From a cyanobiont of Ornithocercus magnificus (GTDB lineage Bacteria; Cyanobacteriota; Cyanobacteriia; PCC-6307; Cyanobiaceae): 64,000 nt of DNA. A program made the translations under genes and the position numbers. How positions within the stretch are numbered: position 1 is the stretch's first letter; each line of letters begins with the position of its first letter. Of this stretch, positions 14,141 to 29,353 are shown piece by piece. Below the pieces are notes generated by a model. It did not search any database. It was not told the origin of the DNA and worked only from the letters and a program-made list of their open reading frames with translations. The stretch is from assembly GCA_007996965.1 (NCBI GenBank), contig BIMP01000001.1:1426001-1490000 (forward strand). The letters run 5' to 3'.

Positions 14141-14174
14141 AAATTTCTTCAGTTCCACACACTTGTTATACCAA

Positions 14175-15080
14175 ATGCATACCCGTGTAAGTAGAATTGG
14201 CCTACTGCTACTAGGATTATTTGGCAGCTTCTGGTGGCTAACACTTTCTATAGCCCTAGCCAAGCCAACATTAAAGATCAGTGCCATTCCTGACCAAAAT
14301 CCAGAGCGTCTGAGCAGGCTTTACGACCTTTTGAGCTTATATCTAAGTAGTCAGTTGAGCGTGCCGGTGCGCTATATACCAGTGACAAACTATCCTGCTG
14401 CGGTAAGTGCCTTCCGCACACGTAGCCTTGATGTTGTGTGGTTCGGAGGCTTGACTGGGGTTCAAGCACGTTTGCAAAGGCCAGGAGCACTTGTACTAGC
14501 ACAGCGTGATATTGATAAGAGCTTCCGCAGCGTCTTTATAGCGAACATCGATAGTGGGCTAGAACCGGTCGACTCGCAGTCAGGATTATCGGTGTTGAAA
14601 GGTAGGCGCTTTACTTTTGGCTCAGAGAGTTCCACCTCTGGTCGTCTTATGCCGCAGTTCTTCTTGGCAGAAGTAGGAGTACTTCCTTCTGACTTCGCAG
14701 GAGGATATGCTGGTTTCAGCGGAAGCCATGACGCAACGATCGCTCTTGTGCAAAGTGGCTCCTATGAGGCTGGTGCACTAAATGAACAAGTCTGGCAGGC
14801 TGCTATCGCCAGTGGTCGAGCCAAGCCGACTGAGGTAATTGTTTTATGGCGAAGTCGACCATACGCAGATTATCATTGGTTAGCACAACCAGATCTTGAC
14901 CGCCGCTTTGGTAGCAACTTTACCAAACGCTTGCAGCAGGCTTTGTTTTCACTTAGTAGTACGAAGCCAGAACATGCACTAATATTAAGCCTGTTTGGAG
15001 CAAAACGTTTTATCCCAGCTAATGAATCGCAATACAACGCGATTGAAGAAATTGGACGACAGCTCGGCAAAGTTAAGTGA
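14175..15080 (+). CDS. phnD: phosphonate/phosphite-type ABC substrate-binding protein
   Basis: A periplasmic binding protein of the PhnD family. From the ATG at 14175 it has 301 residues, with a Sec signal peptide (basic start, hydrophobic segment, probable cleavage after ALA at about residue 30). Family landmarks include YPAAVSAFRTRSLDVVWFG, where a Tyr and an acidic/aromatic pair line the pocket, and FGSESSTSGRLMPQFFL, which carries the Ser-Thr-Ser phosphonate-binding loop. PhnD homologues in marine picocyanobacteria bind phosphite or methylphosphonate; the ligand here is inferred, not shown. phnC overlaps its 3' end and phnE follows, so the complete importer is encoded together. Confidence 0.9.
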   Translation: MHTRVSRIGLLLLGLFGSFWWLTLSIALAKPTLKISAIPDQNPERLSRLYDLLSLYLSSQLSVPVRYIPVTNYPAAVSAFRTRSLDVVWFGGLTGVQARLQRPGALVLAQRDIDKSFRSVFIANIDSGLEPVDSQSGLSVLKGRRFTFGSESSTSGRLMPQFFLAEVGVLPSDFAGGYAGFSGSHDATIALVQSGSYEAGALNEQVWQAAIASGRAKPTEVIVLWRSRPYADYHWLAQPDLDRRFGSNFTKRLQQALFSLSSTKPEHALILSLFGAKRFIPANESQYNAIEEIGRQLGKVK

Positions 15081-15807
15081 GCCCCCTTTGCTAGAGCTTA
15101 AGCATGTTTGTCTAGCAGGACTTCAAGTACCTCGACTAAACAACATCAGCTTATCGTTGCACAGAGGAGAACGTGTTGCACTACTGGGTCCAAGTGGAGC
15201 TGGCAAGAGCAGTTTTCTTGAGGTGTCCTGTGGTAGCTTGACCCCACATGAAGGATGCGTTCTGTGGTGTGGTCGCTCTCTTAAAACATGTCGGCATCGT
15301 GGTCGCATTGGTATGTTATGGCAGAATCTACACCTTATAGAGGAGCTAACAGTCGGGCAAAATATTAATACCGGGATTTTAGGAAGACGCTCACTGCTGT
15401 GGGCATTAACAAATTTACTGACTTGTCCGGAACAAGAAGTATGCTGCCGCTATTTGCAACTTGTAGGGCTTGATCCTGGCCTTGTCAATGCACCCGTGCG
15501 TAGTCTTTCGGGTGGGCAAAGGCAACGCGTAGCACTCGCCCGGGTACTGCGTCAAGCACCAGACTTATTACTAGCTGACGAGCCACTAACAGGTCTAGAT
15601 CCCCGTCTTGTTGACGACATCCTGGCCCTCCTGCTAGAAAAATCTCTACCTTTTACCCCAGAAACAATAGTAGTAAGCCTACATCAGACTTCTTTAGTGA
15701 AGAACTTTGATCGCGTAGTAGGTTTGCGTAATGGCTGTCTAGTCCTCGACTCTTCTGCCAGTTCTTTTGGTATAGAGGAGCAAGAGGCACTCTATAAATT
15801 AGTTTGA
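15022..15807 (+). CDS. phnC: phosphonate-type ABC transporter ATPase
   Basis: The ATP-binding subunit for the adjacent PhnD/PhnE importer. Walker A is GPSGAGKSS, the Q-loop is LWQNLHLIEE, the signature is LSGGQRQRVALARVL, Walker B is LLLADEPLTGLD and the H-loop His is in VSLHQTS. The first convincing start is the ATG at 15022, giving 261 residues and overlapping phnD by 59 bases; a later start near 15080 cannot be excluded, because the ABC domain proper begins at LLELKHVCLAG. It overlaps phnE by four bases (TTGA), indicating translational coupling. Confidence 0.9.
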   Translation: MNRNTTRLKKLDDSSAKLSEPPLLELKHVCLAGLQVPRLNNISLSLHRGERVALLGPSGAGKSSFLEVSCGSLTPHEGCVLWCGRSLKTCRHRGRIGMLWQNLHLIEELTVGQNINTGILGRRSLLWALTNLLTCPEQEVCCRYLQLVGLDPGLVNAPVRSLSGGQRQRVALARVLRQAPDLLLADEPLTGLDPRLVDDILALLLEKSLPFTPETIVVSLHQTSLVKNFDRVVGLRNGCLVLDSSASSFGIEEQEALYKLV

Positions 15808-17366
15808 CAATCTTGCAACGATTGCCGAGACTGTACCCATCAGCTGCAGCGTTGACCTTGCTGTCAGCTACAGCTGTAGTGCCAGTAACCATTGGACTGT
15901 TACCAGGCTGGCACAGCGGTGGCGCCCAGATCTGGATCCAATTTCTTAAAGCTGCTTTCACACCGTCAATGGATGTTGTGGTGCTTAGCAGCGTCTTGAA
16001 CGGTATACAGATAACTGCTGCGATGGCACTGCTGAGCTGGAGTCTCAGCCTAATAGCTGGGACAATATTAGCCCTACCATGCTCATGTTTGTTATGGCGC
16101 TACTTAGGATTTCCTGCATGTTTAGGAGTCTTACTCAGGAGAGTACTCACACTGCCTCGAGCTATACATGAGTTAGTTTGGGGTCTCTTACTGCTACAAA
16201 CTTTTGGACTAAACCTTTGGGCAGCCGTGCTAGCGATCAGTGTTCCCTACGCAAGTACTGTGGCCAGGGTAGTTAGTGACCAACTTGACCACCTTGATCC
16301 AAGACCAATCTGTGCATTTCAGCAACAAGGGGCGAGTCCACAGGCAATGCTGCTTACAGCAGTATTACCTAGTTTACTGCCCCGATTATGTATTTATGGT
16401 AGCTATCAGCTTGAGTGTGCTTTACGAAGTGCGACGGTACTTGGAGTATTTGGGCTTGGTGGACTGGGTACCGATCTTCAACTTACCCTCCAGTCTCTCC
16501 AATTCCAGGAATTTTGGACAGCACTTTGGCCGCTAATTGCAGTTAGTTTTACCTTAGAAAAGTTACTGGCAATTTGGCGCTACAAGACAAAGTTTAAAGA
16601 AGTACCTCTGAAGCAGCTCCTCTGGCTCGCACCCATCACTCTCGTTCTTACCATTGCCAGTGGTGCTTGGCTGTGTCTACTGCAGCCTGACTTGACACAT
16701 ATACCGTCCTGGAGCCCACCACCATTGCCAACAGCCTCAGGAATTATTAGTGCATACCATGCACTACCATGGATAACATTGGTCATTGAAACATTATTGT
16801 TAACTATAATAGCTACTGGAGTAGCTATTGGCCTACCGCCACTGTTGATGCTACTTTTACAGAATATAGGCTGTCGTCACATACTGAACACATGCTGGAT
16901 TTTCCTTCGCCTGCTTCCAGTCCCGCTAATATCGTTACTGTTACTGTTAAGTAACAAACCTAATATAGCTGTTGCAGCACTAGCTCTTGGACTGCATAAT
17001 GCGTCAGTAATGGGCCGTTTTTTAGGTGAGAGTCTTGATAACGTTAGGCCAGTGTACCAGCAAGTCCTGGGAGTAAGTGGGGCCAGGCAACATCAAGCTT
17101 GGCTTTATGGTTCTCTTGTCCCCGAGGCACCGCTATATCTTGCTTACGGGGCCCAACGCATGGACGCAATTCTTAGAGAGACAGCAATAGTTGGATTAGT
17201 GGCTGGCTCTGGCTTAGGACGCCAGCTTGTAGAGTCACTTAGTTTCTTTGCCTGGAGTGAAGTAACACTGCTTCTGCTAGTTTTTACTATCTTGACACTC
17301 TCTGGTGAGCTGATTAGCGAATGGGCTCGCCCCCAATGGCAAGGTCAGTCTGGTCTGCGAAGCTAA
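15804..17366 (+). CDS. phnE: two-domain phosphonate-type ABC permease
   Basis: A 520-residue membrane protein with roughly a dozen hydrophobic segments arranged as two repeated permease halves, each with an EAA-like coupling loop: GASPQAMLLTAVLPSLLP in the first half and GVSGARQHQAWLYGSLVPEA in the second. Canonical PhnE has a single such domain of about 260 residues and works as a dimer; this fused form can supply the whole channel. The fused arrangement also occurs in other marine picocyanobacteria as far as I recall. The start is TTG at 15804 within the phnC stop. The sequence is intact, so phosphorus acquisition through this importer appears functional. Confidence 0.88.
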   Translation: MTILQRLPRLYPSAAALTLLSATAVVPVTIGLLPGWHSGGAQIWIQFLKAAFTPSMDVVVLSSVLNGIQITAAMALLSWSLSLIAGTILALPCSCLLWRYLGFPACLGVLLRRVLTLPRAIHELVWGLLLLQTFGLNLWAAVLAISVPYASTVARVVSDQLDHLDPRPICAFQQQGASPQAMLLTAVLPSLLPRLCIYGSYQLECALRSATVLGVFGLGGLGTDLQLTLQSLQFQEFWTALWPLIAVSFTLEKLLAIWRYKTKFKEVPLKQLLWLAPITLVLTIASGAWLCLLQPDLTHIPSWSPPPLPTASGIISAYHALPWITLVIETLLLTIIATGVAIGLPPLLMLLLQNIGCRHILNTCWIFLRLLPVPLISLLLLLSNKPNIAVAALALGLHNASVMGRFLGESLDNVRPVYQQVLGVSGARQHQAWLYGSLVPEAPLYLAYGAQRMDAILRETAIVGLVAGSGLGRQLVESLSFFAWSEVTLLLLVFTILTLSGELISEWARPQWQGQSGLRS

Positions 17367-20354: not shown

Positions 20355-20796
20355 GCAGCGTAAAGATGCTGTCAGGATGGTCTTCTATTGGCCAATCTTC
20401 ATTTACACCTCCCACTACCAGCTCCTCAAGTTGGACCACATCTACATTAAGCTGGTACAAGGCATTTATAAGTACATCTAGAGCCACAGCGTCACTTGTT
20501 CCAAGATCAATCCAACAGCGAGCCCATGTATCTCGGTACTCCAGTTCACCCATGTTATGCATCAGAGATGGCATAGTAGATGCAGCGCTACTATTGTCGT
20601 AGATCATCCAACTTAAGTCATTGGGTTCTTCATGCACTTGAAGGTTCTCAGCGTTAAAACCACCTAGGCGCCCAAGGACATACCAAGAGTCAAAAATACT
20701 ATCAACGTATTTGCGCTCTCCCGCACTAGGAACATCAGCAAAACGGAGCCATAGCCAGCAGCTAAAGGGATCAACTTCACGAAAATGGACATCCAT
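20347..20796 (-). CDS. DUF3531 protein
   Basis: A 149-residue soluble protein matching the DUF3531 family of cyanobacteria and plastids. It starts MDVHFREVDPFSCWLWLRF at the ATG at 20796 and continues with the conserved blocks SWYVLGRLGGFNAENLQV, MHNMGELEYRDTWARCW and LGTSDAVALDVLINALYQL. An upstream open frame extends to 20913, but this extra part is not family-like and would intrude on the divergent ABC gene. No function is established. It is coupled to rsmE downstream, and its 5' end is 79 bases from the CbiO-like ATPase on the other strand. Confidence 0.85.
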   Translation of the reverse strand: MDVHFREVDPFSCWLWLRFADVPSAGERKYVDSIFDSWYVLGRLGGFNAENLQVHEEPNDLSWMIYDNSSAASTMPSLMHNMGELEYRDTWARCWIDLGTSDAVALDVLINALYQLNVDVVQLEELVVGGVNEDWPIEDHPDSIFTLHD

Positions 20797-20875
20797 AATG
20801 GCGGTAAATAGCATATGTATCATCGCCGCCATCAGCGAGGATGACATAAATCCAGGCATAAGCCTAAGCACAGAT

Positions 20876-21538
20876 ATGTTGGAGCTACTCTCACTTCGAT
20901 ACCAACCTGCCACATCTAGTCACAAAATTTTGCGCGATATCACACTAGTAGCAAAGCAAGGACAACCATGCCTAATAACTGGAGCCAGCGGCAGTGGTAA
21001 AACCACGTTGCTAGAAGTGATTGCTGGTCTCAACACAGGATCAGGTGGACATATCCGATGGAAGGGATCCTTAGTGAATAGCAGGCAGCGTCGCTGGCTT
21101 TGTGGTATGGTGTTTCAGTTTCCAGAAAGACATTTTCTTGGTCTAACTGTTGCTCAGGAGCTATTACTTGGTCAGCGTCGTCTTGACGCTGAGCACAAGC
21201 ACCAAGTGCTGAGGAGGGTTGGTTTAGACTCATTAGACCTGCGCTTAGCCCCAGAACAGCTCAGTGGTGGGCAACAACGTAGACTAGCGTTGGCAGTGCA
21301 GATACTAAGGCACCCAGGAATTCTACTGCTCGACGAGCCTACAGCAGGCCTAGATTGGCAAAATCGCCATGAGATCCTTAATCTTCTAAATATTTTTGCA
21401 CGCGACCTGGTAATGGTTGTGGCAACACACGAACCCGAGTTATTTCTTCAATGGAATTGCCTGCGCCACCAGCTATTAGACGGCCTGCTAATACCAATGC
21501 CTACATCATATCCTGGGTTAGGCACGTCAAATGGCTGA
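20876..21538 (+). CDS. CbiO-like (ECF-type) ABC ATPase
   Basis: A 220-residue ABC ATPase from the ATG at 20876. Walker A is ITGASGSGKTTLLEVIAG, the Q-loop MVFQFPERHFLGLTVAQE is typical of energy-coupling-factor (CbiO/EcfA) ATPases, the signature is LSGGQQRRLALAVQ and Walker B is LLLDEPTAGLD. No EcfT, EcfS or other membrane partner is nearby, so the rest of the complex is elsewhere or unknown. A related plastid protein (AtNAP14) has been linked to transition-metal homeostasis; that parallel is inference. Its stop overlaps the ATG of the decayed hslO. Confidence 0.85.
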   Translation: MLELLSLRYQPATSSHKILRDITLVAKQGQPCLITGASGSGKTTLLEVIAGLNTGSGGHIRWKGSLVNSRQRRWLCGMVFQFPERHFLGLTVAQELLLGQRRLDAEHKHQVLRRVGLDSLDLRLAPEQLSGGQQRRLALAVQILRHPGILLLDEPTAGLDWQNRHEILNLLNIFARDLVMVVATHEPELFLQWNCLRHQLLDGLLIPMPTSYPGLGTSNG

Positions 21539-22160
21539 TTGTCTCATCAGGGCTGCAGTAGCCAGCTGTGGGATTGTGCCGGTCGCGCTAAATGGGGCGG
21601 GGGGTAGTTACGTGAGGCCCGCCGTTGTCACATGCTCTTCTGCTTCACAACCGCAATGCTCGATCGTGCGATGTCAGTAGGTTTTCTACTTGCCAGCTCA
21701 ATGAAAGTGCAGGATGGCCAGGTAAATTTTGTTGGATAACGCATTGGCAGCAGCGGTCTAGATTGCTGTGGAGGATTACTAGTGCAGCTTTTGCCTAAAG
21801 CAATGGCAGAGCCTGACCTAGCTGCTCTACTCGAGCAGCATTACCAAGAGATCAACCATTTCAGCAATTTCCTATAAGCCCACAGCAATGATCTTAATAA
21901 GCTGCTGCAAAAAGCTTTTCCCGAGCTTGACCCACAACCACTTGAGAACACAAAAGCACGGCAAGATATCTGTTTTCAGTGTCGCTGTAGACATGCTCAA
22001 AGCCTAAATGCACTATGACTACTAGGAGTGAAGGATCTATGCAAAATGTTAGAGAAAGAACAGATGTGCAGGGCTAAGCTACCATTTTTGCAATCATGCC
22101 TGTGAGATCTCAGCGGATGAGCTTAATACTCTAATCCGCGAGATTAAGTCCTTAAGCTAA
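21531..22160 (+). pseudogene. hslO: decayed hslO (Hsp33 redox chaperone)
   Basis: Remains of Hsp33, the zinc-bound redox-switched chaperone. The ATG at 21531 overlaps the ABC-gene stop (ATGGCTGA) and gives MADCLIRAAVASCGIVPVA, the expected N-terminus. A frameshift before 21611 moves to another frame, which gives REARRCHML and then [17 protein letters not shown], and stops at TAA 21737-21739. Most of the substrate-binding domain is deleted. The same frame resumes with GGLLVQLLPKAMAEPDLA, stops at TAA 21875-21877, then reads CFQCRC (zinc CxC pair at 21980-21988) and stops again at TGA 22016-22018. A second frameshift restores the start frame, with YHFCNHACEISADELNTLI replacing the usual CxxC motif (first Cys now Tyr, codon 22080-22082). 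About 210 codons remain of about 295. It is not functional. Confidence 0.88.
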
Positions 22161-22838
22161 CAACAAAGTACCTATAAGGAGCAACAGCAGTGCAGGAATT
22201 GCCTCAATCTGATCAGGGTTCAACAGGACTTCTGTTGGCAGTGATATCAGTTGCAGTAGTAAGCCTCCTAAAGCAAGACCAATAGCAAGCAATAAAGCGC
22301 TCCACCCAAGCGAGACTAGTGGGCGACGACCACGGCGGATTTGGCTGATGAATAATCCAATGGTGCCGAGAGAAAGCAGTAGCTCTACAGCTCCAGTGTC
22401 TAGAAGAACCAGTAAGAGACCGGCTGTACCTAGAGCGAGTCGGATCAGCAACCCTTTTCCCTCTGCCAAACGGAGCGTTGGCATGAATGAGGTTGAACTA
22501 CTTGGCTCTGTGGCATATGGCCTAAGAGATTTCAGTCGACTCAGGAGCATATTGGCTCCAGCGGTTAGTCCAGTTGTTACAGGAACACTTTGCTCTCGTT
22601 CAGAGGCAGAGGCAGCTGCTGTGCTAACTCGACCCATCTGACGATCGCGCAAGCGCGACATCAAGACAGCATCATATGAGGACTCGACACGTGCACGGGC
22701 TTGAGGATCATCCCCGACTTCGCGTAGACAGCGGTCTCGAGCAGCCTGGACATCCTCGAAGCTGGCATCAGTATCATCGAGACCCAACTGCTGATATGGG
22801 TCCTGGGAACCTTGGTCAGAAACGGAACCCATGTTCAT
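22152..22838 (-). CDS. CPP1-like membrane protein with J-like domain
   Basis: A 228-residue protein. The N-terminal half has a degenerate J-domain-like region (DPYQQLGLDDTDASFEDVQAARDRCL, then SSYDAVLMSRLRDRQMG) without the HPD motif. The C-terminal half has about four hydrophobic segments (residues ~130-228). This is the layout of the CPP1-like family; plant CPP1 is a chloroplast chaperone that stabilises protochlorophyllide oxidoreductase. A thylakoid or envelope chaperone role is an inference. The start is ATG 22838 (22832 is also possible). Its 3' end overlaps the hslO remnant by 9 bases. A small hypothetical gene and prfC lie upstream on the same strand. Confidence 0.82.
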   Translation of the reverse strand: MNMGSVSDQGSQDPYQQLGLDDTDASFEDVQAARDRCLREVGDDPQARARVESSYDAVLMSRLRDRQMGRVSTAAASASEREQSVPVTTGLTAGANMLLSRLKSLRPYATEPSSSTSFMPTLRLAEGKGLLIRLALGTAGLLLVLLDTGAVELLLSLGTIGLFISQIRRGRRPLVSLGWSALLLAIGLALGGLLLQLISLPTEVLLNPDQIEAIPALLLLLIGTLLLA

Positions 22839-23172: not shown

Positions 23173-24819
23173 CTAAAAAGCAATAGGTTCGACTCCGACA
23201 ACTACTGGTGCTACGGGACTGAGTTCAAATTCTGGCTGGTCTTCTAAAAGTTGATTCAGGTTCCACTCGTTCTTAAACAGAAGAACAGGGCGTGACCATG
23301 AGTCCTGAACAGTACGGGAATTAAAGACTCGTCCAGCCAACTCTAGTGCAGACCAGCCACCACTAACCCAGCGAGCCACTCTGTAGTCCATTAGCTCTAA
23401 AAGCGTGGGTACCCCATACTCAACTTCTAATCTATACTGGACAACGTCTAACTGCAGCTGTCCAACTGCAGCAAGGATAGGATCATGACAACTCTGATCT
23501 ATACTGTAAAGAATTTGAACTGCCCCCTCCTCACGAAGCTCATTGATACCCTTGCGAAAGTTCTTAAAATTTGATGGGTTAGGGTTACGGAGCAGGCCAA
23601 AGATCTCAGGACTAAAGCAGGGAATACCTTCATATTCGACCTCTGGCCCGTGGTAAATTGTATCACCGATAGCAAACATTCCTGGATTGTTAAGGCCAAT
23701 CACATCACCAGGGTAAGCATTCTCGACAACAGTCCGATCTTGGGCAAACAATTTTTGTGGCCTGGACAAACGGATTGTCCGGCCTGTACGTGTATGCCGG
23801 ACGCTCATATCCTTTTCGAAGCGACCACTACAGACTCGAACAAAGGCCACACGATCGCGATGACGCGGGTCCATATTGGCCTGAAGCTTAAATACGAAGC
23901 CGCTAAATCCTGGTGTGAGAGGGTCAACTGGGCCATTAGTACTGTTACGAGCAACAGGGCATTGTGCCATCTTGAGAAAAGAGTCAAGGAAGGGCCGCAC
24001 GCCAAAGCCCGTCATTGCTGAACCGAAGAACACTGGTGTAAGTTCACCAGAGTGCACCATTGCAAGATCGAGCTCTGCACCAGCCAGCTCAAGAAGCTCA
24101 AGTTCCTCAACTGACTGCCTTAGCAGCTCGCTTTCAACCGTTAGAGTAAGAGAGGGATCATCTAGTTGAATATGCTGCTCAGCAGACTGATGACCTCGTT
24201 CAGACCGACTGAACAGAATTACCTGGCGGCTACAGCGGTCAATCACGCCATGAAATTCCTCGCCGCTGCCGATCGGCCAGTTCACAGCCCATGGTGTTAG
24301 CCCTAGCTCTGACTCTATCTCATCCAATAAAGACAAAGGGTCACGTCCTGGACGATCCATTTTGTTGATGAACGTGAAGATCGGCATGCGACGCATGCGG
24401 CACACCTCGAATAACTTGCGCGTCTGTGGCTCAAGGCCCTTAGCGGCGTCCTCTAGCAGCACTGCGTTGTCAGCCGCGGCCAGTGTCCGATAAGTATCCT
24501 CAGAGAAGTCCTTATGGCCAGGTGTGTCGAGCAGGTTGATTGTGCTGCTGCCGTAGTCAAACTGCAGCACTGTGGAAGTGATAGAGATGCCCCGCTGTTT
24601 CTCAAGCTCCATCCAGTCAGCTTTAACGCAGCGCTGCTTACCACGTGCCTTGACGGCACCAGCTTGCTGGATTGCACCGCCGTAGAGTAATAGCTTCTCA
24701 GTAAGTGTTGTCTTGCCAGCATCCGGATGAGAGATGATGGCAAAGTTGCGACGCCGTGCTATAGCCGCAGCTATCACAGGATCGGGAGCACTGGAAGTTG
24801 CAAAATTAACCTGGCTCAT
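23173..24819 (-). CDS. prfC: peptide chain release factor 3
   Basis: RF3 is the GTPase that recycles RF1/RF2 from the ribosome after termination. The protein is 548 residues, near the usual 530. The G domain shows [20 protein letters not shown] (P-loop, about residues 30-49), [16 protein letters not shown] (switch I), [17 protein letters not shown] (G3) and [12 protein letters not shown] (G4 NKMD). Domain II follows ([20 protein letters not shown]) and domain III ends the protein ([15 protein letters not shown]). The ATG at 24819 fits the family N-terminus. Confidence 0.96.
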
Positions 24820-25678: not shown

Positions 25679-28057
25679 GTGATTCTGAGTCGAACTGGCT
25701 TAGTGGCGAAATCCGCCGGTGTTATTGGTCACCCCTGCAGTGACTTCCCTGCCTCAGCGCCGGCAGCAAACCCGGTCTTCTACCGCACCTATAGCCGTCG
25801 CAGTGAGTGTGGGCGCGAAAGCTGGAGCCAGGTTAGCGCGCGCAACCTTGATGGCCTACGCAGGCTCGGTGAACTTAGTGATGAGGAGGTAAGACTGATG
25901 GCACGGATGCAAGATGAGAAAAAGTCTTTACCTTCTGGCCGTTGGCTTTGGATCGGTGGTACGGGATGGATCGAGCGTCAAGAAAACTTTTCCGGGGCTT
26001 ACAACTGCACATCCACTAATCTGGTTGACTGGGAGGCCTTTGGCTTGATGATGGATCTAGCCATGATGGGCTGTGGAACAGGGGCAATCATTGAGCCTCA
26101 TCTAATTAACCAACTTCCAGTTATACTTAATACGATCCACATAGCTCAGGTCACCGACATAGGTGTGACACCAGTCAGTGAACGCCAAGAACACTGCAGT
26201 TACCAAATTGAGGGCAACAGAGTAGCATTACGAGTTGGTGATAGCCGTCGTAGCTGGGTTGATAGCTATCAACTTCTCCTGGAGCTCAGTAGTAACAAGC
26301 TTTTTAATGGAAGCACCATTGAGGTTTCAGTCGACCTGTCGGATGTACGTCCTGTGGGAGAGCCCCTTAAAGGTTTCGGCGGTGTTGCTAATCCAATCAG
26401 GTTGAAAGATTTGTATGGGCGTGTTGCTCAGCTCTTAAATAATGCTAATGGTCGGCACCTGACATCAGTCGAGTGCTGTTTACTAATTGATGAAGCAGCA
26501 CTTACTGTCGTAGCTGGTAACATTCGCCGCAGTGCTGGTATGCGGCAGTTTGCCTCTAGTGACCTAGGCGCTGCAGTCGCCAAGGATGGACTTTGGCAAC
26601 AGGATGCAGACGGCAATTGGTGCATCGATCCGAAACGGGACGTCTTGCGTATGGCTAATCATACCCGTGTTTACCACACTCGCCCCAGCCGTGAGGTGGT
26701 GCTTGAGTCAGTTACCAGGCAATTCTACTCTGGTGAGGGGGCTATCCAGTTTGCGCCAGAGGCAATCGCAAGATCTAACGCTGATCTCCTCAGTACATTG
26801 GAATTGCGACGCGAGTTTGTAGAGGTTTATTGCGATCAAGGACGTGAGGAAGCCAGTCGTTGGCTCGCTCTTAACCATGGCCCAATTGATGATGATGAAC
26901 TTGAGCATCGACTGAGCCGCTACGGCCTTAATCCCTGCGGCGAGATTTTAGGCACTAACTTTCATTGTAACCTTGCCGAGGTTCATCTCAACCAGGTCGA
27001 TGTTTCTGACGAAGAAGAGCAGGCCAATGCTTTCCGTGCCGGAGCACTCTCGGCAGCCTGTCTGCTTAACCATAAATTTACAGTAGAGCGCTATCGCCGC
27101 AGCCGCGAGTGGGATCCAATTGTAGGGATAAGCTTCACAGGCCTGTTCGACTTCTTCGTGCACGCTTTCGGCATTCCCTGGCTACACTGGTGGCAACTTG
27201 GCCGGCCCAATACTCCAGAGGGTTGTGCGTTTAAAGACAGAGAAGCAAGCTTTCTCACCCGCTGGCGCGAGGTTGTGAACACAACTGTCTGGGATTATTG
27301 TGATCGCCATGGCCTTCGGCGACCTAACCGCTGCACGACAGTTCAGCCTGCTGGCACCAAGAGTCTACTAACCGGTGCAGCGCCCGGTTGGCACCCTCCC
27401 AAGGCACAACGCTTCATTCGTCGTATTACCTTTCGTAGGGGTGATCCAGTTGCCATGGCCTGTATAGACTATGGCTATACTGTGGTGCCGTCACAATCTG
27501 ACAAGGATGAGCAAGGACAGCTTTTGAATGATCCTTTTGATTCTCGCTGTACAGAGTGGCTGGTAGAAATTCCTACCGAGGTTAGCTGGGCTAATCTTCC
27601 TGGGGCTGACACTATAGATATCAATGCCTTCTCAGCCCTCGCCCAATTCGATTTTTATATGCAGGTTCAGCGCCATTACACAGCACATAACACATCGGCT
27701 ACAATCGAGTTTCGCGAGCACGAAATAGAGCCACTTGCTGATGCTTTACATCAAGCGATAGTTAGTGGAGAAGGTTACATCTCCGTAGCATTACTGGCGC
27801 GCTTTGACGCGAACGCAACGTTCCCACGTCTGCCTTTTGAGCCTATCGATGCAGGAACCTACGAGAGACTTCAATCAGACGTGATAAAGCGCCGAGTGAA
27901 TAATGACTTCTTTGAGGTTCTACGTCATTACGACAGTGATAAACTGATTGAAACTGGCCCCGCTGGTTGTGACTCTGATAGGTGTCTACTGCCTCTAACA
28001 ACATCTGAAGGACTGAAAGCCATAATAGAATCCCCCTTAGACGCTGATAATCTGTGA
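25679..28057 (+). CDS. nrdJ: adenosylcobalamin-dependent (class II) ribonucleotide reductase
   Basis: A 792-residue monomeric class II reductase that makes deoxyribonucleotides from ribonucleoside triphosphates with B12 as radical source. Landmarks: SGAYNCTSTN (N-terminal cysteine of the redox pair), MMGCGTGAI, NPCGEILGTNFHC (radical Cys in NPCGE and the second redox Cys in FHC), QPAGTKSLLTGAAPGWHPP, and a C-terminal CDSDRC pair that would shuttle electrons from thioredoxin. The start is GTG 25679. No intein or frame break is present. Dependence on B12 agrees with cbiX at 51 kb. tRNA-Ser begins 25 bases after the stop. Confidence 0.94.
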   Translation: MILSRTGLVAKSAGVIGHPCSDFPASAPAANPVFYRTYSRRSECGRESWSQVSARNLDGLRRLGELSDEEVRLMARMQDEKKSLPSGRWLWIGGTGWIERQENFSGAYNCTSTNLVDWEAFGLMMDLAMMGCGTGAIIEPHLINQLPVILNTIHIAQVTDIGVTPVSERQEHCSYQIEGNRVALRVGDSRRSWVDSYQLLLELSSNKLFNGSTIEVSVDLSDVRPVGEPLKGFGGVANPIRLKDLYGRVAQLLNNANGRHLTSVECCLLIDEAALTVVAGNIRRSAGMRQFASSDLGAAVAKDGLWQQDADGNWCIDPKRDVLRMANHTRVYHTRPSREVVLESVTRQFYSGEGAIQFAPEAIARSNADLLSTLELRREFVEVYCDQGREEASRWLALNHGPIDDDELEHRLSRYGLNPCGEILGTNFHCNLAEVHLNQVDVSDEEEQANAFRAGALSAACLLNHKFTVERYRRSREWDPIVGISFTGLFDFFVHAFGIPWLHWWQLGRPNTPEGCAFKDREASFLTRWREVVNTTVWDYCDRHGLRRPNRCTTVQPAGTKSLLTGAAPGWHPPKAQRFIRRITFRRGDPVAMACIDYGYTVVPSQSDKDEQGQLLNDPFDSRCTEWLVEIPTEVSWANLPGADTIDINAFSALAQFDFYMQVQRHYTAHNTSATIEFREHEIEPLADALHQAIVSGEGYISVALLARFDANATFPRLPFEPIDAGTYERLQSDVIKRRVNNDFFEVLRHYDSDKLIETGPAGCDSDRCLLPLTTSEGLKAIIESPLDADNL

Positions 28058-28168: not shown

Positions 28169-28581
28169 TTCAATTGACTAAATTGTGATCTTATGGGGTA
28201 TCCTCCTTGAACTTTTTAGGGATCTTGATGCCGAAGTACCGTATTTTCTTAGATGCACTCTAAAAGAATTTATAAAGAGAATCAAGTTACTTGTCAGTCT
28301 TGTTATGGTGAGAAAACCTTAAAAGTTCTAGTACCAACTGTTGTCCACCGCACTAGTGTTAAGAAACCAAAGATGTTTCACTAAGTTTGTAGACGAAATA
28401 CTTGCCCTCCTTTTGGCGAGTGGACCATGACTTTGATGCACCTTATCCAGCAACAAACGTTACAACCCTGCCCAATACTTGTCTCATAGTAATGTACCTC
28501 TTAGCATATTCAAGAGCCAAATATAAAGCCACAGATTATTGTCACTGCGTTAGATAATAGTTGTGTTGAGCTAATTAGCCA
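28169..28581. other. gap after tRNA-Ser with one short open frame
   Basis: About 410 bases with no recognised gene. One plus-strand frame at 28253-28384 begins ATG and encodes 43 basic residues with a CxxC pair (QVTCQSCYGEK); it has no evident ribosome-binding site. It could be a real micro-protein, a zinc-ribbon relic, or chance. Everything else is stop-rich. No terminator with a T-run was found directly after the tRNA. Confidence 0.4.
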
Positions 28582-28773
28582 GTGCCTAATTCAGAAGCCC
28601 CTCTGCACGGAAGATGTCTGGGTCCAGTTATTGGATGGAGATCAAGAAAACTTAATATTGCTATAGCGCTCCGGAAAGATGGTTGGTCTTATCAGACGAT
28701 AGGTAAACATTTTTTATGTTCCCCGAGAACTATCGGTAGGGATATTATAAATCTTACTGCAAGAGGCTATTAA
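28582..28773 (+). CDS. possible small helix-turn-helix protein
   Basis: A 63-codon frame starting at GTG 28582. Its C-terminal half, ALRKDGWSYQTIGKHFLCSP followed by RTIGRDIINL, fits the helix-turn-helix pattern of resolvase/MerR-type recognition domains (LRxxGxSyxxIgxxfxxSxxTIxRdi). The N-terminal 25 residues have no resemblance to anything I know. No ribosome-binding site is obvious, so it may be a standalone DNA-binding protein or the surviving domain of a decayed regulator. The regular pattern of substitutions compatible with a fold is the main support. Confidence 0.45.
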   Translation: MPNSEAPLHGRCLGPVIGWRSRKLNIAIALRKDGWSYQTIGKHFLCSPRTIGRDIINLTARGY

Positions 28774-28920
28774 CATATCATAGTTGACCTAGGTTAGCCT
28801 GAGATTTGAGCCTGTAACTATACCATGGTGCTTACTTTCAGATGCAGGGCACCAAGTTCTTGGAGTAGCACAAGGCAACATAATCACAGCGTCTATGTCT
28901 ATACTCTTAGAAAAAAGTCA

Positions 28921-29118
28921 ATGGCACGAAAGTATGGTGACGAAAAGCTTAAGGCAGTCCAGGATCTTAAAGAAACACTAGTCGTGCATCTTGAGGCGCT
29001 CTACCTCGACTGTTTTGAGAAACTTAATGATCTTGAGGTTGGTGAGGGTGAGGTTACACGGCTCACGCAGCTTTTCCTGCAGTCTCGAGATGCTGCTATT
29101 AGGCCACTGCAGGAATAG
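28921..29118 (+). CDS. small conserved hypothetical protein, helical
   Basis: A 65-residue protein from ATG 28921 (MARKYGDEKLKAVQDLKETL), highly charged and predicted to be almost entirely helical, with a leucine periodicity suggesting a coiled coil or helical hairpin. The upstream in-frame extension to 28825 is low in similarity to coding sequence and is left out. I regard it as a likely lineage-conserved small protein of marine picocyanobacteria but cannot name a family or function. Confidence 0.6.
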   Translation: MARKYGDEKLKAVQDLKETLVVHLEALYLDCFEKLNDLEVGEGEVTRLTQLFLQSRDAAIRPLQE

Positions 29119-29353
29119 AGATGGTCAATTCGTATGACCTGCAACTCAACTTGATCAGTTCTCTAGCAAGTCTGTCAGCATTCCTGGCTTACACAAGGCG
29201 TGAGTGTATGCAAATATAGGTTGTGAGTAAAAGTTTCATGACCTTATCTTTTCAAGGCATGTGTGGTCGACTAATGAGCTCTACTAATAGCAACAGGAGG
29301 TATTTGATCAGCATAGGCCACTGGCGAGCGACTAGCCCCAATCTTAAGATGAC

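What the first reader, a model, noticed from the sequence alone, without database searches (positions are those of the whole stretch)
21531..22160. hslO (Hsp33) caught in stepwise decay
Sequence: the N-terminus, a middle segment and the C-terminal zinc region of Hsp33 can all be read, but across two frames, with three in-frame stops (21737, 21875, 22016), two frameshifts and loss of most of the substrate-binding domain. Of the four zinc cysteines, the CxC pair survives and the first Cys of CxxC is now Tyr. Because many segments are still recognisable, decay is recent. Knowledge: Hsp33 protects against oxidative unfolding; losing it is more tolerable in a protected or low-oxidant habitat. Inference: this supports relaxed selection or genome reduction in this lineage.
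Basis: partly seen in the sequence, partly recalled or inferred. Interest (0 to 1): 0.6.

Follow-up and report, generated by a model that had tools for sequence, protein, structure and literature searches.

The report
Dead hslO chaperone gene, marine cyanobacterium
A gene for a stress-protection protein (the chaperone Hsp33), kept by nearly all related cyanobacteria, has been broken beyond use here by three stop signals, two frame shifts and a large deletion; it is a real but ordinary dead gene, and it says little about the organism's habitat.

Summary
21531-22151 (+) is an hslO (Hsp33) pseudogene in its ancestral place (rsmE, DUF, ABC ATPase, hslO, CPP1-like gene, prfC). It carries in-frame stops at 21737, 21875 and 22016, two frameshifts, a 97-codon deletion of the client-binding domain, and CxxC changed to YxxC. 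No other Hsp33 exists in the 1.88-Mb assembly. Of 270 other high-completeness family genomes, 261 have hslO at E of about 1e-42 or better.

The loss is young: 3 stops and 8 of 31 changed invariant columns fit about 0.1-0.2 neutral substitutions per site, while fourfold sites to every relative are saturated. "Stepwise" order cannot be recovered.

The wider inference is weak. Smaller Prochlorococcus-type genomes keep hslO. A 2.4-2.6-Mb genus lost it independently and more completely. Four peroxiredoxin-superfamily genes and Ni-SOD are intact here. No second decayed gene was recognised in most of the window's gaps.

The host looks like a symbiont-type lineage (OmCyn-like), which is a plausible but unproven setting. 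Ordinary pseudogene; low interest.

The parts
21531..22151 (+). hslO (Hsp33) pseudogene, whole extent
   Evidence: frameshift-aware profile alignment, columns 1-303; PF01430 search of own genome
21531..21609 (+). N-terminal segment in frame of ATG 21531 (MADCLIRAAVASCGI...), about columns 1-26
21609..21613 (+). first frameshift, approximate, just after a G-rich run (GGGGCGGGGGG)
21611..21727 (+). second N-terminal segment (REARRCHML...MKVQDGQVN), columns 27-65
21727..21728 (+). deletion junction: 97 codons (columns 66-162) of the N-terminal client-binding domain missing
   Evidence: domain mapping by alignment to solved Hsp33
21737..21739 (+). in-frame stop TAA
21740..21874 (+). end of N-terminal domain and linker (RIGSSGLDCCGGLLVQLLPKAM...)
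   Evidence: Pfam HSP33 weak hit on this fragment
21875..21877 (+). in-frame stop TAA
21878..22015 (+). linker and start of zinc domain; CxC kept (FQCRC)
   Evidence: Pfam HSP33 weak hit on this fragment
22016..22018 (+). in-frame stop TGA
22067..22070 (+). second frameshift, approximate
22071..22151 (+). C-terminal segment; CxxC reads YHFC
20711..21538 (+). intact ABC transporter ATPase, conserved upstream neighbour of hslO
   Evidence: synteny in intact relatives; ATPase family hits
22152..22838 (-). intact CPP1-like membrane protein gene, conserved convergent downstream neighbour (name from own knowledge)
   Evidence: synteny; no NCBIfam hit
23173..24819 (-). intact prfC (peptide chain release factor 3), conserved neighbour

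Best explanation
The stretch is the dead remnant of the cell's only hslO gene, decaying in its ancestral place by ordinary mutation after selection on it stopped. Shown: the gene is in the conserved locus, carries several independent null lesions, and has no intact copy in the assembly. Inferred: constraint ended about 0.1-0.2 neutral substitutions per site ago, late on this lineage's long branch. It makes no working Hsp33: each lesion alone (early frameshift, three stops, loss of half the client-binding domain, loss of a zinc cysteine) would prevent the zinc-controlled chaperone from forming. Why it was lost is not known; the likeliest reason is that Hsp33 is a conditional, partly redundant stress chaperone lost by drift in a lineage with weakened selection, such as a host-associated picocyanobacterium.
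For: Alignment score 234 against a null of 12-22. Single locus in own genome. Same gene order in nearly all intact relatives with the needed sequence. 261 of 270 other high-completeness family genomes carry hslO at E of about 1e-42 or better; this one scores 8e-13. 7/29 invariant columns changed by MAFFT placement and 8/31 (one of them a stop) by the profile path, against a leave-one-out mean of 1.8% and maximum of 9.4% in intact Hsp33, while four of five neighbouring intact genes here show 0% and prfC 5.8%. Neutral simulation gives both about 3 stops and about 26% changed invariants at d of 0.1-0.2. Fourfold sites to all relatives near random.
Against: No reads were available to confirm the lesions. 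Completeness is 95.6%, so an intact copy on missing sequence cannot be fully excluded. The dating assumes a simple mutation model and an unrelated relative's gene as start point.
Confidence: 0.95

Rival explanations
1. Sequencing or assembly error: an intact gene made to look broken.
For: One frameshift sits beside a G-rich run; the assembly is a 16-contig draft; no reads to check.
Against: Seven separate lesions of different kinds, including a 291-nt deletion and a raised rate of change at invariant residues, in one gene whose neighbours on both sides are intact. Errors do not concentrate substitutions at conserved columns.
Confidence: 0.02
2. The lesions mark loss of Hsp33 as an adaptation to a protected, low-oxidant, host-associated habitat.
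For: Genome size, isolated deep position at the base of the marine Synechococcus/Prochlorococcus group and a long branch resemble the published dinoflagellate symbiont OmCyn (PMC11150560), whose chamber is described as stable.
Against: Ni-SOD and four peroxiredoxin-superfamily genes intact. A non-reduced genus (2.4-2.6 Mb) also lost hslO. A sponge-associated relative (Aphanocapsa feldmannii, L036; its lifestyle from own knowledge) keeps an intact hslO. A photosynthetic cell makes its own oxidants (own knowledge).
Confidence: 0.12
3. A fragment of the pseudogene is still used, for example as a short zinc-binding peptide or a regulatory RNA.
For: CxC motif and a linker fragment remain readable; nothing excludes transcription.
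Against: No open stretch of the hslO frame exceeds about 50 codons and the fragments after the first stop lack their own conserved start. Conserved residues are being lost at a near-neutral pace.
Confidence: 0.02

Closest known systems
Hsp33 / HslO redox-regulated chaperone family (PF01430)
   Same: Recognisable N-terminus, linker and zinc region over columns 1-303, same genomic locus as intact Cyanobiaceae hslO
   Different: Three stops, two frameshifts, 97-codon deletion, CxxC lost: no longer a gene
Pseudogenes of reduced cyanobacterial symbionts, e.g. spheroid body of Rhopalodia (PMC2246100), Nostoc azollae (PMC2900214)
   Same: In-place decay of a gene conserved in free-living relatives
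   Different: Here one recognisable case in the gaps examined in 64 kb, not a genome visibly full of pseudogenes; lifestyle of this organism not proven. Known from titles and abstracts only; comparison not computed
OmCyn and CregCyn, dinoflagellate cyanobionts with reduced genomes (PMC11150560)
   Same: Marine picocyanobacterial lineage, about 1.9 Mb; OmCyn sits alone at the base of subcluster 5.1, as this genome appears to in a 5-gene tree
   Different: Identity of this genome is not shown by any tool; the paper's text does not mention Hsp33, hslO or pseudogenes

Membership tests
Hsp33 (functional member) | Uninterrupted reading frame of about 290-305 codons | tested here: not met
   three stops, two frameshifts
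Hsp33 (functional member) | Complete N-terminal client/linker-binding domain | tested here: not met
   columns 66-162 deleted, mapped on solved structures
Hsp33 (functional member) | Four zinc cysteines CxC...CxxC (C232, C234, C265, C268 in E. coli, PMC4735815) | tested here: not met
   CxC kept, first Cys of CxxC is Tyr
hslO pseudogene | Significant similarity to the family over the ancestral length | tested here: met
   score 234 against null up to 22
hslO pseudogene | Orthologous position between conserved neighbours | tested here: met
   ABC ATPase - hslO - CPP1-like - prfC order in relatives
hslO pseudogene | No intact copy elsewhere | tested here: met
   limited by 95.6% completeness
hslO pseudogene | Release from purifying selection | tested here: met
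   7/29 and 8/31 invariant columns changed
hslO pseudogene | Lesions confirmed in raw reads | not testable with these tools
   no reads available
OmCyn (organism identity) | Sequence identity to the published OmCyn assembly | not testable with these tools

The most novel reading that the evidence does not exclude
Hsp33 has been lost at least twice independently in a family where 261 of 270 other high-completeness genomes keep it (here as a fresh pseudogene, and completely in an unnamed 2.4-2.6-Mb genus), pointing to a shared but unidentified condition under which a photosynthetic cell can do without it, possibly a host chamber in the present case.
Probability: 0.15. Interest if true: 0.4.

Novelty: new member of a known kind. 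Interest (0 to 1): 0.18.

Why it matters
It gives a clear, dated example of in-place gene death in a marine picocyanobacterial lineage and shows, with an independent erased locus in another genus, that Hsp33 is dispensable in some oxygenic phototrophs. It does not by itself reveal habitat or genome-wide decay, so its wider value is small.

Tried and rejected
(1) Second hslO copy: none. (2) Assembly error: judged unlikely from the number and kinds of lesions, untestable at read level. (3) Shared loss with the hslO-less genus (G028, G142): rejected, since G002, sister to that genus, keeps hslO and this genome branches outside both (support 0.954 and 0.998). (4) Absence in seven Prochlorococcus-type genomes: not counted as loss, because the adjacent ABC ATPase is also not found in those assemblies, while a control genome of the same genus has both, so the whole locus is probably missing. 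(5) A remnant of hslO in the G142/G028 gap: both show a short SIATL..ELKSIL stretch at the right columns, but the score (22.3) is within the range of 40 shuffles (up to 22.5), so it is marginal. (6) Other decayed genes in the window: frames of several large gaps scanned with Pfam gave only small known genes (DUF2949, a chlorophyll-binding-like domain) and a weak HTH; not all gaps and frames were scanned. (8) A first ORF script had a bug and was replaced. (9) An IQ-TREE run hit its time limit without support values; FastTree was used instead.

Full report
WHAT IS THERE. The region 21531-22151 on the + strand was aligned to a profile built from Hsp33 proteins of the same family, allowing frameshifts and stops. 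It matches from column 1 to column 303 with score 234; fifteen mononucleotide shuffles give 12-22 and the opposite strand 16. In-frame stops lie at 21737 (TAA), 21875 (TAA) and 22016 (TGA), frameshifts near 21613 and 22070, and 97 codons are missing at 21727. The CxC zinc pair is kept; the first Cys of CxxC is Tyr. Two words need correcting: the deletion takes about half of the N-terminal domain rather than most of it (mapping on solved structures), and a stepwise order cannot be read from one genome.

WHERE IT SITS. In nearly all relatives whose locus was fetched, the order is rsmE, a DUF gene, an ABC ATPase, hslO, a CPP1-like gene and prfC. In intact relatives the space between the ABC ATPase and the CPP1-like gene is mostly 930-1420 nt (one larger outlier); here it is 613 nt. 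This is decay in the ancestral place, not an imported fragment. The profile search finds no other Hsp33 in the 1.88-Mb assembly (95.6% complete).

HOW COMMON. Among 270 other Cyanobiaceae genomes of at least 90% completeness, 261 have hslO with E of about 1e-42 or better (not every match row was printed, but each genome's best E was). Nine have none. The other two (G028, 2.6 Mb; G142, 2.4 Mb in one contig) form one genus and keep both neighbours, with only about 420 nt between them and no clear Hsp33 signal. Their gaps are 75% identical to each other, close to the 81% at fourfold sites, as expected of unconstrained DNA. In a five-gene FastTree, G002, which has hslO (at contig edges), is sister to that genus (0.954) and the present genome branches outside both (0.998), so the two losses are independent.

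HOW OLD. Of 31 invariant columns covered here, 8 are changed, one of them to a stop; by a separate MAFFT placement it is 7 of 29, against a leave-one-out mean of 1.8% and a maximum of 9.4% among intact Hsp33. Neutral mutation simulated on six intact relatives gives three stops and a quarter of invariants changed at about 0.1-0.2 substitutions per site. At fourfold sites this genome is close to random identity with every relative tested, so the gene died late on a long branch. With the Prochlorococcus HLII mutation rate of 3.5e-10 per site per generation (PMC10837832), 0.15 per site is roughly 4e8 generations; the generation time is unknown, so no date in years is claimed.

WHAT IT MEANS. Hsp33 needs its zinc switch and its linker-docking N-terminal surface (PMC4735815); this remnant can supply neither, so it is not a working gene. 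The habitat inference does not follow. Ni-SOD and four AhpC/TSA-family genes are intact; smaller genomes of the family keep hslO and a larger-genome genus lost it. Four of five neighbouring genes show no change at invariant columns; prfC shows 5.8%, above the 3.9% maximum among relatives on one column set and 14 changes against 11 and 10 in the next taxa on another, a mild sign of general relaxation. Pfam recognised no second decayed gene in the gap frames scanned, but not every gap and frame was scanned. A window of 64 kb is too small to judge the whole genome.

WHICH ORGANISM. The genome is the only one of its genus among those held, 1.88 Mb, with a long branch at the base of the marine Synechococcus/Prochlorococcus group. 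A published dinoflagellate cyanobiont, OmCyn, is described as a lone lineage at the base of subcluster 5.1 with a reduced genome (PMC11150560). The match is plausible (about 0.6) but no tool here names the genome. The paper's text does not mention Hsp33, hslO or pseudogenes. If correct, weakened selection in a host chamber is a reasonable setting for the loss, as inference only.

VERDICT. Real, correctly read, unique among the genomes seen in its state of decay, and ordinary in kind.

Noticed in passing
L109 1109-1482, L121 2128-2546 and L140 7242-7669 (genomes G028 and G142): A two-member, 2.4-2.6-Mb genus of the same family has lost hslO independently; the slot between its conserved neighbours is about 420 nt, with at most a marginal trace of the zinc region.
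   Followed up: yes
G074:C4:63921-64780 (L148, L149): hslO in this 3.2-Mb relative is split into two overlapping matches in different frames, suggesting a single frameshift or a sequencing error.
   Followed up: no
window 14163-17366: Phosphonate/selenate-type ABC transporter genes (substrate-binding, ATPase and a fused-looking 520-aa permease) in a row.
   Followed up: no
window 25679-28057: Adenosylcobalamin-dependent ribonucleotide reductase (TIGR02505), so deoxynucleotide synthesis by this enzyme depends on a cobalamin cofactor.
   Followed up: no
window 28170-29353: A gap of about 1.2 kb without a long ORF next to tRNA-Ser; only weak HTH-like hits in one frame.
   Followed up: partly
window 23173-24819: prfC is intact but has slightly more changes at otherwise invariant columns than any relative tested.
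   Followed up: partly
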